DNA of 56,196 nt from a virus, in the IMG/VR virus record IMGVR_UViG_3300010397_000013, positions 1-56,196 of that record; one strand, 5' to 3'. The translations under genes were made by a program, and so were the position numbers. The notes beneath the pieces are model-generated. The model made no database searches, was not told where the DNA came from, and worked only from the letters and a program-made list of their open reading frames with translations. Positions within the stretch are counted from its first letter, which is position 1. Every line of letters begins with the position of its first letter. Positions 13,814 through 47,880 of the stretch are shown here, piece by piece.

Positions 13814-15592
13814 ATGGCAAAGCCACAACCTTCCTTCCTCAAGTACGGCATCAGGTGGAAGCCTACAACTCCAGACTTGGAGATAGAGTTTTACTGCATG
13901 AGGAATTATGTGCAGTGGGATCTTAATCAGTTTGAACACTACAAAAACGCTCAGAAATTGTTATGGCCCACCCACGATCATCACCGCTGGTCTGACTTGA
14001 TTCTAAGCACAATCCTTCAGGAGAGACTTACAATCGTTACTGGCCCAAAGGACACAGGCAAAACAACCGTAGCTTTGGCAAAGTTTGGACTTACTGATTA
14101 CTTCGCAAACCCAAACAACACCTTAATACTCGTTTCATCCACGGAATTAAGGGGGTTGGAGACAAGGGTTTGGGGTGAATTAAAGAAGCTGTTTACGGAA
14201 GCAAAAGAAATTCACCCATGGCTTCCCGGCAAAGTTGTCGATTACATGCATGGATTGTTCACCGATGATCTTGGCGAGAATTGCCAAACCAGAGACATCA
14301 GGAAAGGGATGCTTTGTGTTCCGTGTGTCGGTGGCTCCGGTGAATGGGTAGGTATTGAGAAGTTTTGCGGCATCAAGCAGGAGCGCAGAAGACTGTTAGC
14401 CGATGAGCTTCAATTTATGAAAGCTCCATATTTGAATTCAGTCGAGCACTTGGATAAAGGGGATTTCAAGTTCGTGGGGTGCAATAACCCAATCGGGCAA
14501 GGCGATCCAGCGGACAAGATGTCTGAACCAATTGATGGATGGGGCACTGAGCCACAGACTGAAAAGACTGAAGTTTGGAAAAACAAATGGGGTGGAGTCA
14601 CCATAAACCTTGATGGCCGAGACAGTCCAAACAACGATGAGCCAAAGAACAGATACCCATACCTGATTAACGATGGTGATATTCAGCGCACCCTGAAGCG
14701 GTGCGGGCCAGACTCAAGCGCCTTCTGGACTCAGGTCATTGGTAAAAGGAAAGTCGGGCTACTGGAGCACCGGATTTTAACCTATGCTATGTGCAAGACA
14801 TTCGGTGCGTTTGATGAAGTCATCTGGAAGAATGGCGTTGGGTTCAAGATTTACGCCATTGACGCCAGCTATGGCGGGGACCGTTGCGTTGGTGGATTTG
14901 CTGAAGTCGGTGAAGATGTTAACGGGCAATGGGTCATCGCGTTCAGCACTCCGGTATTGATCCCTATCAAAATGAGCGAACTGGAGAACAAGATCGCTGA
15001 GGATCAAATAGCTGAGTTTGTAAAAGCAGACTGTGATGTGAACGGCATTCCGCCAGAGAACGTTTACTTCGATGCCACCGGCAGGGGATCGTTGGGCACA
15101 AGCTTTGGAAGACTTTGGAGTGCCCAAGTAAACCCTGTTGAATTTGGTGGAACACCAACACCACGGCCCGTTGCTGGAGATTTGTTCATCCTTGATCCAC
15201 AGACCCGCCAGAAGCGGCTAAAGCGTTGTGACGAACACTATTCAAAGCGAGTCACAGAATATTGGTTCAGTGTTCGCTATCTGGTTGAGGCCAGACAGAG
15301 CCGAATGATGCCAAAAGAAGTGGCCGAAGAATTTGGAATGCGTGAGTGGTATATGGTTCGAGGGGACCGACGCGAGGTCGAAACTAAGGAAGAAACCAAG
15401 TTGCGAATGGGTTGTTCCCCTGACTTGGCAGATTGGGCCTGCATCATTGTAGAGGGTGCAAGACGCAAAGGATTCGTGATCAAACATGGCCAAGCAGTCA
15501 CGCTTGGACCCAAAAGCGTTCAGTGGAAAGACGATCTCCGTAAACGCGCCGAAGCCATCCGTAACAGATATGAGTTGAATTACTCAGTCTGA
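13814..15592 (+). CDS. terL: Terminase large subunit (TerL), 592 aa
   Basis: The DNA-packaging motor ATPase and nuclease. Walker A is GPKDTGKT at residues 77-84 and a Walker B-like LLADE lies at 194-198. The C-terminal RNase H-like nuclease is marked by IYAIDASYGGD (Asp350), VYFDATGRG and SPDLADWAC, which carry the expected acidic residues. Length of about 590 fits large terminases. It is the first gene of the plus-strand packaging block and no Shine-Dalgarno is visible before its ATG (CTTAAAATATGG). A small terminase subunit was not identified nearby. Confidence 0.9.
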   Translation: MAKPQPSFLKYGIRWKPTTPDLEIEFYCMRNYVQWDLNQFEHYKNAQKLLWPTHDHHRWSDLILSTILQERLTIVTGPKDTGKTTVALAKFGLTDYFANPNNTLILVSSTELRGLETRVWGELKKLFTEAKEIHPWLPGKVVDYMHGLFTDDLGENCQTRDIRKGMLCVPCVGGSGEWVGIEKFCGIKQERRRLLADELQFMKAPYLNSVEHLDKGDFKFVGCNNPIGQGDPADKMSEPIDGWGTEPQTEKTEVWKNKWGGVTINLDGRDSPNNDEPKNRYPYLINDGDIQRTLKRCGPDSSAFWTQVIGKRKVGLLEHRILTYAMCKTFGAFDEVIWKNGVGFKIYAIDASYGGDRCVGGFAEVGEDVNGQWVIAFSTPVLIPIKMSELENKIAEDQIAEFVKADCDVNGIPPENVYFDATGRGSLGTSFGRLWSAQVNPVEFGGTPTPRPVAGDLFILDPQTRQKRLKRCDEHYSKRVTEYWFSVRYLVEARQSRMMPKEVAEEFGMREWYMVRGDRREVETKEETKLRMGCSPDLADWACIIVEGARRKGFVIKHGQAVTLGPKSVQWKDDLRKRAEAIRNRYELNYSV

Positions 15593-33750: not shown

Positions 33751-34392
33751 TCAGTCTTCCAACACTTCAAATCCAACAACGTTGAAACGTCCGAATGAAG
33801 GACGGAAATCTCCAAGTCCAATCAGCTTGCCAGCCGCCGCAATCGTTGAGTTGAGAAGTTGAGGCTCAATGTATTCCGGCAGGTTGATCATCAAAATGAA
33901 CTTTGCCTTCCAACCTTCACGCATCGCTGGACGCGAACGGGTAATGGCGTTTCTCTGAATACAAACCCTTCTGCGATCCATGTAATCCCACTCTTTAACC
34001 CCAAGACTGGCGAGTGGAGTGAGTGAAATCACAGCCGCCTTAAACAAGTCCGCTGCCGACTTACGCGGGGACCGAGGGTCTTGTTGGAACTTGGCGGCAC
34101 CAACAATCGCACCTCGCAGATATTCACCGGGAATTGCCAACTCGCCTTCATCTGTTCGATAGACGTAGCTTTCAACGTCATCAGATTTTTTCTCTGCACT
34201 TCCTTTCTTGGCCTTCGATTTCGACTCAACCGATTCGCAGTTCCACCGATGGAACAAGATTGGAGCCGTGCCTTCAATTGTGATTTCACACCGATAAGGC
34301 ATCATCATTTCAATGCCATTTGCTGCACCGTTACTTGGAGACTCACCACCTATTGCGCCAACGATTCTATTTTTCTCTAATGTTTTTGCCAT
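33751..34392 (-). CDS. Conserved phage protein, possibly nucleic-acid binding, 213 aa
   Basis: The sequence has a disordered, lysine-rich segment (ESKSKAKKGSAEKKSDDVES) followed by conserved-looking phrases IPGEYLRGAIVGAAKFQQDP, RKSAADLFKAAV, QRNAITRSRPAMREGW and a C-terminal IGLGDFRPSFGRFNVVGFEV. I recall the last phrase from phage proteins of unknown role that lie near replication genes. The Gly/Arg-rich 'GLGDFRP.FGRF' end distantly resembles the glycine-rich loop of RAMP-type RNA-binding folds, but I cannot show homology. Confidence 0.6.
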   Translation of the reverse strand: MAKTLEKNRIVGAIGGESPSNGAANGIEMMMPYRCEITIEGTAPILFHRWNCESVESKSKAKKGSAEKKSDDVESYVYRTDEGELAIPGEYLRGAIVGAAKFQQDPRSPRKSAADLFKAAVISLTPLASLGVKEWDYMDRRRVCIQRNAITRSRPAMREGWKAKFILMINLPEYIEPQLLNSTIAAAGKLIGLGDFRPSFGRFNVVGFEVLED

Positions 34393-34467: not shown

Positions 34468-34530
34468 GCACCAGACCGCCAAAAGTTGTAGCGCCTCGCT
34501 TGGGAAGCGAAGCCAATTGACGACTGGTGC
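34468..34530 (+). other. Truncated tRNA-like fold (tRNA-Pro-like, anticodon GGG)
   Basis: GCACCAG (34468-34474) pairs with CTGGTGC (34524-34530), a 7-bp acceptor-type stem. Inside are a CGC/GCG D-type stem and a TCGC-TTGGGAA-GCGA arm whose 7-nt loop has T33, GGG at 34-36 and A37, as a tRNA-Pro would. There is no normal T arm (only about 12 nt remain before the 3' stem) and no encoded CCA. It looks like a deleted tRNA or a tRNA mimic rather than a working tRNA. Confidence 0.35.
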
Positions 34531-34624
34531 AAATTGTTTTGGTTTGCATAACGGGCTACAATCCGTTTAACAGTTGCAATTTCAGCAGAATACCGGTAAT
34601 AAGTCAATAATAAACTTTGGAAAT

Positions 34625-34813
34625 ATGAAAATAACCCTGCTCCTTCCACTCCTCTGTCTCTGCTGCACCTCTTGCAGCACAACGAACATCTCGAAGCTCG
34701 CCGAGCAGTTAAAGAACGACCCCGCGACAGTGGACCTCAACGTAACGACTATCTGGGGTTCGTTTCAATTCCATCGCTCGTTCCCAACGAATTGGGTGCC
34801 GCCGAAGAAGTAG
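34625..34813 (+). CDS. Small lipoprotein, 62 aa
   Basis: ATG 34625 gives a leader MKITLLLPLLCLCCTSC with a lipobox-like CCTSC|C or TSC|S site, then a short domain LAEQLKNDPATVDLNVTTIW GSFQFHRSFP. I recall small phage lipoproteins with 'L..DPATV...V.T.YG...F.R' phrases. It may be an outer-membrane spanin-like or exclusion lipoprotein; this is inference. It faces the structured non-coding zone and runs opposite to its neighbours. Confidence 0.65.
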   Translation: MKITLLLPLLCLCCTSCSTTNISKLAEQLKNDPATVDLNVTTIWGSFQFHRSFPTNWVPPKK

Positions 34814-35386
34814 GGCACAGGATGCATTTTTGCGGAGCGTTAACCACTGACTATCATCTTACTCCCCGAATGAGGAGAGATCGAACCGTGATCCGATCTC
34901 ATTCGCCCGTCACGGCGAACAGCCTGTATTAAATTGGTGGCTGCTCGTTGCTTTACCCCGGTTTTTCTCCGGGCAAGCAGCCATTAAAATTGATGCGGCA
35001 TCGAACCCTTGTTCGTTCTCAGCTTGGCTAACCCGCCATGCCGCGTGGCGTTCTCGTTTCGCGCATTTGGCTCGCACTTACCTTACCTTCATGGAGCGCG
35101 TGGAATCAGGTCCACTCTGCTTTGATCCACTACTGCATTGAGCCATTGGTAATTTATTCACAGCCAGCGCCATGTCATATCACAATGAAACCGGGCTGCG
35201 CATTTCTGCGCTCTGTTAATTTCAATCCGCACCCTGCAACTCAATGCGGGGTGACATCTTTATCGCTCTCTGGCGCTGGCTGAAATTTGGTGGCTCCCCC
35301 CGCTTTTCACGAGAATCCCGCGAACAGCCAGCCTAGGACTCTCGTTCGCAGTCATCGGAATTGCACCGATAGTAGCCATAAATGGA
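34814..35386. ncRNA. Candidate large structured non-coding RNA region
   Basis: About 570 bp without a plausible gene but dense in perfect inverted repeats: CGAATGAG/CTCATTCG (34867/34898), TGGCTGCT/AGCAGCCA (34938/34976) around CCCGG/CCGGG, TGCGGCAT/ATGCCGC (34994/35038) around CGAAC/GTTCG, TGGCTC/GAGCCA (35068/35140) around GTGGA/TCCAC, and CAGCCAGCGCC/GGCGCTGGCTG (35161/35272) enclosing ATGTCA/TGACAT, GCGCA/TGCGC and CCGCA/TGCGG. A last unit spans 35291-35378 with TGGCT/AGCCA and ATCGG/CCGAT. The nesting resembles multi-stem RNAs; strand is unknown. Large phage ncRNAs (GOLLD, ROOL classes) are precedents; I have not shown it is one. Confidence 0.55.
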
Positions 35387-35890
35387 TTACGGCTTCGGGG
35401 TCGGAGTGCCAGCAACCAAACCAAGGTTCGCCGCATTGGCTCCAATCACACTGAGGCGGACTACATCGCTGATTTCCTCAACGCCCTCTCCGAGGTCGGC
35501 ATCGGCCTTGACCATGACTTCCGTATCACCCGGATCATCGCTGCTGATCAGGTCAGCGGACAGGCCGTCATCGGCAACCTTCACTTGGCTGCTTCCACTG
35601 ATGACTGTCCATGAAGGTGAGCCATCCAGTTTGGCAGGTTTGCCGGTAGCGGTGACGGGTTTCAACGTAACGTTTACTTGCTGCTCATTTGTTATTCGAA
35701 TTTCCAGGGGCATTTTTATCTCTTTCTCTTTTGGTTTTGGCTGCCCGACAGACCAACCGAATCGAACAGTCCGTGTTTTTGTCTCACTACATCCAAACAA
35801 CCGGCAAAGCCAGTTTTGGAAATTTGTCTTTTTCACAACGTGCTCAATCTCGGCGATTGATGCATCAACTTCAATCACAACTTTAGGCAT
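35387..35890 (-). CDS. Ig-like domain phage protein, 167 aa (or 108 aa)
   Basis: The C-terminal ~108 residues, from an internal ATG at 35713, read MPLEIRITNEQQVNVTLKPV, WTVISGSSQVKVADDGLSAD and DPGDTEVMVKADADLGEGVE, a bacterial Ig/Big-type domain I recall from phages beginning in that way. The frame extends upstream another ~59 residues from ATG 35890 with a separate, Lys/Thr-rich segment. AGAAAGAGATAAAA before 35713 resembles a ribosome binding site, so both products may occur. A virion adhesin or decoration role is possible. Confidence 0.6.
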   Translation of the reverse strand: MPKVVIEVDASIAEIEHVVKKTNFQNWLCRLFGCSETKTRTVRFGWSVGQPKPKEKEIKMPLEIRITNEQQVNVTLKPVTATGKPAKLDGSPSWTVISGSSQVKVADDGLSADLISSDDPGDTEVMVKADADLGEGVEEISDVVRLSVIGANAANLGLVAGTPTPKP

Positions 35891-35903
35891 AGCAACACTC
35901 ACT

Positions 35904-36134
35904 CTACCTGCTCGCGCCCTTCTCGGCAACGGTGGGGATCTCCTCCTGAATCCTCGTGTTCCACGCCTTGATCGCCTCGCGTCGTGTCGCGAATGTCAAC
36001 ATGGATTGATAGCCTTGGCAGTGCTCAGTATTGCAACCGGCAGATTTGCGCACATCACCAAGCAACTCCGATTCTTCAATTTGAACATCGTTACTGCCGC
36101 AGAATGGACATGGAAGTAATGTTTCTTCGCTCAT
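35904..36134 (-). CDS. Lar-like zinc protein, 76 aa
   Basis: The N-terminus LLPCPFCGSNDVQIEESELL and the later AGCNTEHCQGYQS ... EAIKAWNTR match the layout of Lar/restriction-alleviation type proteins (CPFCG, then Cys pair, ending 'AI.AWN.R'). Members counter host restriction enzymes in some phages, though most are untested. It overlaps the next gene's end by 44 bp. Confidence in the fold is good, in the function moderate. Confidence 0.7.
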   Translation of the reverse strand: MSEETLLPCPFCGSNDVQIEESELLGDVRKSAGCNTEHCQGYQSMLTFATRREAIKAWNTRIQEEIPTVAEKGASR

Positions 36135-37275: not shown

Positions 37276-37666
37276 GTATCACCTCAATCTTGATTACCGT
37301 TCCCTCCTGCTCGCGCTCCAGCACCTTCACTTGGCTGACTTCAAGCGCAATGTCTTGCGCTCTGTCGTTCGGGATGATTTGCGCGTAGCGGCAGCAATCG
37401 ACAAAATATTTTGGGCAAAGATTGTCTGGATCGATGAGCCTCCGTCGATAAGAGATAATGCTGACCCGAAGGCGCTTTGCGTTGCCTGCTTCTCCTTTTT
37501 GCGTTGCCAAGGATTCATCGCAAAAAGGGCGTTCAGACTCGGAACGGGATGCTTCACAAACAGAGCGATGTCCTTCATTTATTCTTTCAACATTTCTCGC
37601 CAGCGTGCTCTTGCTGGCACCAGGAAAACGGCGTCGAAGTTCGTCTGGAGTGATCTGATTACTCAT
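37268..37666 (-). CDS. RusA-like Holliday-junction resolvase, 132 aa
   Basis: The C-terminal half, RLRVSIISYRRRLIDPDNLC PKYFVDCCRYAQIIPNDRA, with later VSQVKV and a final TVIKIEVIHD, matches RusA family endonucleases: the Asp residues of DPDN and the following D are the likely metal ligands. RusA resolves four-way junctions made by recombination or replication. The N-terminal ~60 residues look like a separate helical region. It is transcribed with small genes of block 6; the exonuclease/Sak4 module lies elsewhere. Confidence 0.72.
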   Translation of the reverse strand: MSNQITPDELRRRFPGASKSTLARNVERINEGHRSVCEASRSESERPFCDESLATQKGEAGNAKRLRVSIISYRRRLIDPDNLCPKYFVDCCRYAQIIPNDRAQDIALEVSQVKVLEREQEGTVIKIEVIHD

Positions 37667-38097
37667 TTAATTAACTTCTGCTTTGCCGCATCTGCTTTTA
37701 CCTTCTCTGCTTTAGCTGCCTCTCGTTCCGCCTTTGCATCTTCTCTGGCTAGACAACGAATCGTCTCAATTTTCTCATTATTGTAAACAGCGTCTTCTTT
37801 TTCTTTTTGAGTTGGCCCCGAACCCAATGGTGTTCCTTCAAGAAGTATCTCCACAAAAAACGCAGTGAATGTCTTCGCATAGTCCCGATCACTCCAAGTG
37901 AGAGGATTGAGGACTTTTCGCGAAAGTTTTATCGCCGCATTTTCAATCTCTGTGCGAGATGATGACGCTGGGATCGGATCTGTAAACCGAACCTTGGCCG
38001 GATCTTTAGCCACCACAACACAGAGTTCATTATCACGAAGAATCTTGATGTCCTCTGCGCTCATGGAGTTTTCCGGCAGAATAATAATTGGCTTCAT
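37663..38097 (-). CDS. Conserved phage protein, 144 aa
   Basis: First gene of the minus-strand block 6. The opening MKPIIILPENSMSAEDIKIL and RDNELCVVVAKDPAKVRFTD PIP are phrases I recall from uncharacterised phage proteins next to replication genes. The C-terminus is a Lys/Glu/Ala coiled coil (REDAKAEREAAKAEKVKADA). The role is unknown. Confidence 0.6.
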   Translation of the reverse strand: MKPIIILPENSMSAEDIKILRDNELCVVVAKDPAKVRFTDPIPASSSRTEIENAAIKLSRKVLNPLTWSDRDYAKTFTAFFVEILLEGTPLGSGPTQKEKEDAVYNNEKIETIRCLAREDAKAEREAAKAEKVKADAAKQKLIK

Positions 38098-38248
38098 TTA
38101 ATTTTCAGCGTGAACGAAAATGGTTTGTTTCAATCCGCGCCCCATAATTACAGGGCGATAACTCACGCGAGCGAGAATGCCGAAATCCAAACTCCCTGTC
38201 AACAAATATTTTTACTTTCGTCAATTATTTTTCTTGACCCTACCCAGA
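38098..38248. promoter_or_regulatory. Divergent control region
   Basis: 151 bp between divergent genes. It is AT-rich near 38200-38240 and contains TGTCAA, CGTCAA and CTTGACC half-sites, i.e. TTGAC motifs on both strands that could be −35 boxes or an operator for the adjacent HTH protein. No clear −10 is visible. An inverted repeat GCCCCATAATTACAGGGC lies at about 38138. Confidence 0.42.
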
Positions 38249-42867: not shown

Positions 42868-43016
42868 CTGCCGGAAACTGCCGAAAAGTATATTTTCAGC
42901 ACTCAGTGCCAACCTGTTGACTGCTGCCTGCCGAAAACCTTACATAGTAAGTTTTCGGCAGTCGGCAGTCGGCACTGCCGATAATGAGAGTAAAAACACA
43001 AAAAGGTTTTCGGCAG
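42868..43016. repeat. Iteron-like CTGCCGAAAA repeats with a hairpin
   Basis: CTGCCGAAAA or its complement occurs at 42878-42887, 42928-42937, 42952-42961 and 43007-43016, with a near copy at 42868-42877. The two central copies face each other and form a 14-bp stem with one bulge (TGCCGAAAAC-c-TTAC, loop ATA). A tandem CGGCAGT repeat lies at 42956-42976. This lies between the minus gene at 42852 and the methyltransferase genes, so it may be an operator cluster or a replication-control site. Confidence 0.6.
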
Positions 43017-43027
43017 GTAATCACCCC

Positions 43028-43081
43028 ATGACCAAAACCCTGGAAATCTACGATCAAAACCAGAAAGGAAACCAACCTTGA
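43028..43081 (+). CDS. Leader-peptide-like frame duplicating a downstream gene start, 17 aa
   Basis: ATG 43028 reads MTKTLEIYDQNQKGNQP and stops at TGA 43079-43081, which overlaps the TTG of the methyltransferase and the ATG of the overprinted frame. Its first ten residues, MTKTLEIYDQ, are identical to the start of the 57-residue gene at 43942. It could couple translation of the overlapping genes or be a duplication scar. Confidence 0.5.
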   Translation: MTKTLEIYDQNQKGNQP

Positions 43082-47648: not shown

Positions 47649-47666
47649 TCATCGGCTTGTCACGAG

Positions 47667-47700
47667 ACCCCGGAGTGCTTTCGAGTGCTTCGGGGTTTTT
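47667..47700 (+). terminator. Intrinsic terminator, plus strand
   Basis: ACCCCGGAG (47667-47675) pairs with CTTCGGGGT (47688-47696; one G-T pair) and is followed by TTTTT to 47700. Ends the 46420-47648 operon. Confidence 0.8.
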
Positions 47701-47710
47701 CGTGTACAAG

Positions 47711-47744
47711 AAAAACACCCCGACGAAATGAATCGACCGGGGTG
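47711..47744 (-). terminator. Intrinsic terminator, minus strand
   Basis: CACCCCG (47716-47722) pairs with CGGGGTG (47738-47744); on the minus strand it is followed by TTTTT. It would end the transcript of the minus gene at 47881. Together with 47667 it forms back-to-back terminators. Confidence 0.72.
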
Positions 47745-47880
47745 ACTCAAGAAAAGATTTATTTATTGAGCATACCTAAAAGGCATAGTGCTTTGGTTCA
47801 ATGTTTATAGGGTTTAAATGAGTTATGTAAAGATTGTGCCAAGCGAGTATACTTTTTTGGCATTAGACGGGATTGTGGGA

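What the first reader, a model, noticed from the sequence alone, without database searches (positions are those of the whole stretch)
34814..35386. About 570 bp dense in nested inverted repeats: a candidate large non-coding RNA
At least five long-range stems of 6-11 bp enclose shorter perfect hairpins. The largest is an 11-bp pair (35161/35272) around four inner stems. Several units share TGGCT...AGCCA borders, so the zone may be modular. It is of the size of known large phage RNAs such as ROOL, but I cannot assign it to a known class.
Basis: partly seen in the sequence, partly recalled or inferred. Interest (0 to 1): 0.72.

Follow-up and report, generated by a model that had tools for sequence, protein, structure and literature searches.

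The report
Phage decoy mimicking a CRISPR repeat
Inside a hairpin-rich non-coding stretch, this phage carries a single copy that imitates the repeat unit of a bacterial type I-C CRISPR immune system (and a second, better copy 2.9 kb away), which probably makes decoy RNAs that jam the host's CRISPR machinery; the hairpins around the first copy remain unexplained.

Summary
The structured zone is real. It is no known large RNA: Rfam gives nothing, and close relatives hold different content in this gap, so a conserved ROOL-like RNA is unlikely and covariation cannot be tested. What can be identified lies inside that 12-bp stem, on the minus strand: 35255-35219, GTCACCC..GGGTGCGGATTGAAAT, a solitary type I-C CRISPR-repeat-like unit. 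A covariance model built only from CRISPR repeats of Verrucomicrobiota genomes finds two strong sites in the 56-kb window: this one (E 7e-6) and a better one at 38159-38127 (E 7e-7). Distant relatives carry the same kind of unit, some with a terminator or promoter beside it; no Cas5d gene is present. Best reading: RNA anti-CRISPR (Racr) candidates that titrate the host's Cas5d/Cascade. That is a known kind of element, here divergent and embedded in a larger fold. The function of the remaining hairpins is not shown. In passing, a separate covarying RNA motif was found at 34468-34542.

The parts
35219..35255 (-). SRU1: solitary type I-C CRISPR-repeat-like unit GTCACCCCGCATTGAGTTGCAGGGTGCGGATTGAAAT (hairpin plus single-stranded GGATTGAAA handle; enlarged apical loop compared with host repeats)
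   Evidence: Model R1, built only from Verrucomicrobiota CRISPR repeats: 26.5 bits, E 7.1e-6; Rfam CRISPR-DR9 18 bits, below cut-off
35161..35172 (-). 3' arm (minus-strand RNA) of the 12-bp helix enclosing SRU1
   Evidence: centroid fold, z -4.5 for 35155-35290
35271..35282 (-). 5' arm (minus-strand RNA) of the 12-bp helix enclosing SRU1
35198..35211 (-). GCGCAGAAATGCGC hairpin with GAAA loop, 3' of the SRU1 handle
38127..38159 (-). SRU2: second, better solitary type I-C repeat-like unit ATCGCCCTGTAATTATGGGGCGCGGATTGAAAC, in the 5' leader of the ORF 37663-38097 (-)
   Evidence: R1 29.5 bits, E 7.4e-7; no overlapping ORF of 60 aa or more
38197..38202 (-). TTGACA, a possible -35 element upstream of SRU2 (no good -10 recognised)
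   Evidence: not listed by the consensus scan
34938..34983 (-). TGGCTGCTTG..CGAGCAGCCA stem with inner 5-bp hairpin, then CCA; role unknown
   Evidence: z -4.3
34995..35044 (-). 7-bp stem GCGGCAT/ATGCCGC with two inner hairpins, then ATCA; role unknown
34867..34920 (-). two or three adjoining hairpins; role unknown
   Evidence: z -2.8
35309..35345 (-). hairpin of about 10 bp, one mismatch; role unknown
   Evidence: (I13)

Best explanation
The minus strand of the zone carries a solitary mimic of a type I-C CRISPR repeat (SRU1), enclosed by a 12-bp helix and followed by a GAAA-capped hairpin; a second solitary repeat (SRU2) lies 2.9 kb away on the same strand. Proposed mechanism: minus-strand transcripts of the phage fold into the repeat hairpin plus its GGAUUGAAA handle, and the host's Cas5d (which processes type I-C repeats) binds or cuts them instead of pre-crRNA. 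Cas5d and perhaps Cas7 are then tied up in useless subcomplexes, so functional Cascade does not assemble: an RNA anti-CRISPR (Racr). Shown here: both sites resemble genuine type I-C repeats far above background, are solitary, lie in gaps between the likely genes, and have no Cas5d gene in the phage. Inferred: transcription, Cas5d binding, inhibition, and that the host is a bacterium with a type I-C system. The other hairpins of the zone may stabilise or insulate the RNA, but this is a guess.
For: R1 was built from seven CRISPR repeats of Verrucomicrobiota genomes only; in the window it finds SRU2 (E 7.4e-7) and SRU1 (E 7.1e-6), next best 0.2. In 49 other records of this phage group it finds only G005/L141 (two sites) and G007/L136 (one) strongly, plus one weak site (0.0089). 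The repeats used come from real arrays, 7-59 copies at 64-72 bp spacing, with Cas5d in 9 of 10 such genomes, mostly on the array's contig. Other records carry solitary units with telling neighbours: L162 (Chthoniobacter MAG contig) followed by a T-rich terminator-like hairpin; L165, two copies, one shortly after TTGACA..TATAGT and the other after a near-identical TTGATA..TATAGT; L136 and L141 with strong hairpins downstream. Hairpin + GGATTGAAA occurs 22 times in the fetched DNA (some entries are overlapping loci of one site) against a mean of 2.1 and maximum of 8 for shuffled motifs. The 8 phage/MAG units pair in 100% of cells, with one A-U to G-C double change (5/500 shuffles). SRU1 folds as hairpin plus unpaired handle inside the 12-bp helix. 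No Cas5d in these phages. Racrs, including a type I-C one, are experimentally established elsewhere (PMC10651486).
Against: SRU1 is degenerate: larger loop, C-A mismatch above the basal stem, final T for C; it matches the best host repeat held at 29/37 positions and 30 blastn bits, below the 90% identity and 41.1-bit cut-offs used to call SRUs. No good promoter or terminator was found for SRU1 on the minus strand. The three close relatives that hold this gap lack it. The host is unknown: no relative of the capsid protein in 387 Verrucomicrobiota genomes and no convincing spacer match. SRU1 explains 37 of 573 nt.
Confidence: 0.6

Rival explanations
1. The zone is a single large structured non-coding RNA of an undescribed class with its own function, and the CRISPR-like hairpin is one domain of it or an incidental resemblance.
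For: Excess structure on both strands; a 12-bp helix closes an inner multi-hairpin domain with z -4.5.
Against: No Rfam match; absent from close relatives with the same neighbouring genes; no homologue found, so no covariation; incidental resemblance is unlikely at E 7e-6 with a second unit on the same strand.
Confidence: 0.15
2. The solitary repeats act as Cas5d-dependent processing or sensing sites in phage transcripts (SRU2 and one L141 unit sit in the leader just before a gene), so that host CRISPR activity alters phage gene expression, rather than as decoys.
For: SRU2 lies about 30 nt before the start codon of ORF 37663-38097, and the L141 unit at 15096-15130 lies 11 nt before the start of a lipoprotein-like gene.
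Against: SRU1 is not directly in front of a gene; other units (L136, L162, L141 9161) are followed by terminator-like hairpins, as stand-alone small RNAs would be.
Confidence: 0.12
3. The zone is a decayed or non-canonical tRNA-like array on the minus strand: several stems end in N-C/T-CA followed by AATTTAA, and relative L082 has a genuine tRNA-Leu in this gap.
For: Repeated GCC-ACCA / GC-ATCA ends followed by AATTT in the sequence; tRNA-Leu in L082, 57 bits; weak tRNA-like gene in L103.
Against: No tRNA by ARAGORN at default settings, no tRNA-model match in the window at E up to 10; stem plus NYCA occurs 21 times genome-wide under the same rule, so two in the zone are a modest excess.
Confidence: 0.05
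4. The inverted repeats act at DNA level (replication origin, recombination or packaging site), or the gap is a hotspot where mobile fragments accumulated, the CRISPR-like unit being a passenger remnant of a host array.
For: Gap content changes completely between close relatives: small ORFs, a tRNA, a shared 142-bp element.
Against: A second unit in another gap of the window and units in distant phages and a MAG contig point to recurrent selection for the repeat.
Confidence: 0.08

Closest known systems
RNA anti-CRISPRs (Racrs) / solitary repeat units, in particular RacrIC1 of a Bifidobacterium prophage (PMC10651486)
   Same: Single CRISPR-repeat-like unit of type I-C on a phage, not in an array, no Cas5d gene alongside; hairpin plus repeat-derived 3' handle.
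   Different: SRU1 is more divergent than the published calling threshold allows against the repeats held here, has no recognised promoter, and sits inside a 12-bp helix of a larger structured zone; activity untested.
Type I-C CRISPR repeats of Verrucomicrobiota (e.g. GTCACCCCCCGCGAGGGGGGTGCGGATTGAAAC of genome G237)
   Same: Shares GTCACCCC at the 5' end and GGGTGCGGATTGAAA at the 3' end with SRU1.
   Different: Host repeats form arrays with spacers and cas genes; the phage unit is single with a longer, altered apical part.
Large phage/bacterial ornate RNAs (ROOL, GOLLD)
   Same: Size of the zone and dense nested helices.
   Different: No Rfam match, not conserved in close relatives, no homologue found.
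Phage tRNA clusters
   Same: A relative has a tRNA-Leu in the same gap; some stem ends resemble acceptor ends.
   Different: No tRNA model or ARAGORN hit here.

Membership tests
Racr / solitary repeat unit (type I-C) | Sequence and fold match a CRISPR repeat subtype | tested here: met
   R1 E 7.1e-6 (SRU1) and 7.4e-7 (SRU2); fold
Racr / solitary repeat unit (type I-C) | Published calling rule: at least 90% identity over at least 90% of a known repeat and at least 41.1 bits | tested here: inconclusive
   Not reached against the nine Verrucomicrobiota repeats held (best 30.2 bits SRU1, 34.2 bits SRU2); the 17,823-repeat library and the true host's repeat could not be tested
Racr / solitary repeat unit (type I-C) | Solitary: no second repeat nearby | tested here: met
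   Flanks of 200 nt hold no second copy
Racr / solitary repeat unit (type I-C) | No cas genes alongside | tested here: inconclusive
   Only Cas5d was sought: absent from the window record; other cas genes were not searched for
Racr / solitary repeat unit (type I-C) | Intergenic | tested here: met
   SRU2 overlaps no ORF of 60 aa or more; SRU1 overlaps only an 81-aa + strand ORF that nothing supports as a gene
Racr / solitary repeat unit (type I-C) | Often directly downstream of a promoter | tested here: inconclusive
   SRU1 none recognised; SRU2 has TTGACA at 38202-38197 without a clear -10
Racr / solitary repeat unit (type I-C) | Host carries the same CRISPR subtype | tested here: inconclusive
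   About 10 of 387 Verrucomicrobiota genomes have matching type I-C arrays; host of this phage unknown
Racr / solitary repeat unit (type I-C) | Inhibits CRISPR-Cas as RNA | not testable with these tools
   Needs an experiment
ROOL / GOLLD / any Rfam family | Match at the family's gathering score | tested here: not met
   0 matches in the whole window
tRNA | ARAGORN or tRNA covariance model match | tested here: not met

The most novel reading that the evidence does not exclude
The zone encodes one multi-domain decoy RNA in which a CRISPR-repeat mimic is displayed inside a stabilising 12-bp helix together with other hairpins that mimic or titrate other host RNAs or defences: a composite RNA anti-defence locus rather than a minimal Racr.
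Probability: 0.15. Interest if true: 0.75.

Novelty: new member of a known kind. Interest (0 to 1): 0.45.

Why it matters
If right, a hairpin thicket that looks like an unclassified large RNA contains a divergent RNA anti-CRISPR that the published calling rule would probably pass over, in a phage group whose capsid protein has no match in the phage collection searched. Subtype-specific covariance models made from host repeats, as here, could then uncover many more RNA anti-CRISPRs. The embedding helix raises a testable question: whether decoy repeats work within larger RNAs.

Tried and rejected
Rfam search of the window at gathering score, and of the zone with permissive E-values: nothing above threshold. 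BLAST of the zone against phages and plasmids: chance-level only. Relatives via flanking genes: the phrog_4652 gene gave 80 loci but not the zone; the Ig-like gene and its counterparts gave only the same few phages. tRNA-array idea: dropped after ARAGORN and the tRNA model. A 142-bp element shared by L082 and L103 in this gap (94%) was traced only to those two records. Spacers of Verrucomicrobiota type I-C arrays against these phages: only chance-length matches in the part of the output seen. Search for related prophages by capsid protein in Verrucomicrobiota: none, which shows little without a positive control. One fold scan timed out and was repeated smaller. L138 has a hairpin before GGATTGAAA but a different stem base, and R1 did not report it, so it is not counted.

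Full report
WHAT IS THERE. The window is a 56,196-bp virus record. The zone 34814-35386 is the gap between a short lipoprotein ORF on + (34574-34813) and an Ig-like ORF on - (35387-35929). Its structure is real: z -3.7 and -3.3 on the two strands with 0 of 100 shuffles as good; the most structured of 25 windows of the same length sampled over the genome; five perfect inverted repeats of 8 bp or more against 0.87 expected. The largest helix is 12 bp, 35161-35172/35271-35282.

NOT A KNOWN LARGE RNA. No Rfam family reaches its threshold anywhere in the window. Relatives were fetched through a neighbouring gene and the presumed major capsid protein. The four closest (83% capsid identity: L082, L083, L084, L103) do not contain the zone. 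L103 has the same neighbours but a 433-bp gap with other content; L082 has a genuine tRNA-Leu and small ORFs; L084 has a short gap; for L083 the fetched stretch showed no match to the neighbouring genes.

THE IDENTIFIABLE PART. Permissive Rfam search gave a weak CRISPR direct-repeat hit (18 bits) at 35255-35220 minus, and blastn gave a short match of the same place to L136, a distant relative. The shared letters, CACCCCGCATT and GGGTGCGGATTGAAA, look like a type I-C CRISPR repeat. A pattern scan found such units in only two bacterial contigs (a Chthoniobacter MAG contig and a Sedimenticola contig) and in two viral records. In L162 the unit is single and followed by a T-rich terminator-like hairpin; in L165 one unit follows TTGACA..TATAGT and the other a near-identical TTGATA..TATAGT. 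Scanning all fetched DNA for hairpin + GGATTGAAA gave 22 entries (some are overlapping loci of one site) against a mean of 2.1 for shuffled motifs, and disclosed a second, better unit in the window itself at 38159-38127 minus.

INDEPENDENT TEST. Of 387 Verrucomicrobiota genomes, about ten hold genuine arrays whose repeats contain GGGYGCGGATTGAAA (7-59 copies, 64-72 bp apart); nine of ten such genomes have Cas5d. A covariance model from seven of these host repeats only (R1) finds two strong sites in the window, 38127-38159 (E 7.4e-7) and 35219-35255 (E 7.1e-6), both minus; the next is 0.2. Of 49 other records of the group, only G005/L141 (two sites) and G007/L136 (one) match strongly, one more weakly at 0.0089. 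The eight phage and MAG units keep the basal stem in every cell, with one A-U/G-C double change. The phages carry no Cas5d gene and the window's units have no second copy nearby. SRU1 folds as a hairpin plus unpaired GGAUUGAAA handle within the 12-bp helix, followed by a GAAA-capped hairpin (z -4.5).

INTERPRETATION. Solitary repeat units on phages can act as RNA anti-CRISPRs: RacrIF1 binds Cas6f and Cas7f and prevents Cascade formation, and a type I-C Racr was active in tests (PMC10651486). In type I-C the repeat is processed by Cas5 (same paper). I therefore read SRU1 and SRU2 as Racr candidates. Identity as type I-C repeat mimics is, in my estimate, about 90% certain; anti-CRISPR function about 60%, since nothing here shows transcription, binding or inhibition. 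SRU1 is degenerate and, against the repeats I hold, below the published calling rule; it may be a decayed or a functionally altered mimic. SRU2 lies in the leader of a gene, about 30 nt before its start codon, and one L141 unit is similarly placed, which leaves open a processing or sensing role.

WHAT STAYS UNEXPLAINED. SRU1 is 37 of 573 nt. The other helices (34867-34920, 34938-34983, 34995-35044, 35309-35345) match nothing. Some end in acceptor-like NCCA or NTCA, but neither ARAGORN nor the tRNA model supports tRNAs. The host is not known; Verrucomicrobiota are suggested only by repeat similarity and by the L162 contig, and other phyla were not compared.

VERDICT. The recognisable core is a divergent member of a known kind of anti-defence RNA element.

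Noticed in passing
window 34468-34542 (+), beside the phrog_4652 gene 33751-34392 (-): A conserved structured RNA motif: GCAC..GTGCAAAT outer stem with an inner hairpin; 9 of 17 pairs change on both sides across 7 phages, 0/500 shuffles reach the covariation score. A model of it finds further members in L137 (1.2e-8), L005 (1.4e-5) and L042 (3.7e-5), near homologues of the same gene. No Rfam match; strand unknown.
   Followed up: partly
L082 18787-18928 and L103 21061-21202: A 142-bp non-coding element, 94% identical between two phages although the neighbouring Ig-like genes differ strongly; not found elsewhere in IMG/VR by exact 20-mer.
   Followed up: partly
L103 20986-21058 (-): ARAGORN tRNA-like gene with an 8-nt anticodon loop; the tRNA covariance model does not report it.
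   Followed up: no
window 42917-42980: Long hairpin with repeated TTTTCGGCAG motifs just before the ORFs starting near 43078 (region z -5.3).
   Followed up: no
window 47657-47745: Back-to-back strong hairpins, the first followed by a T run, probably terminators (z -6.9).
   Followed up: no
window 35904-36134 (-): Lar-like restriction alleviation protein (PF14354, phrog_599) about 650 bp from SRU1: a possible counter-defence neighbour.
   Followed up: no
L163 5934-5964: Single degenerate type I-C-like repeat next to other CRISPR arrays in a Sedimenticola contig, probably an array remnant.
   Followed up: no
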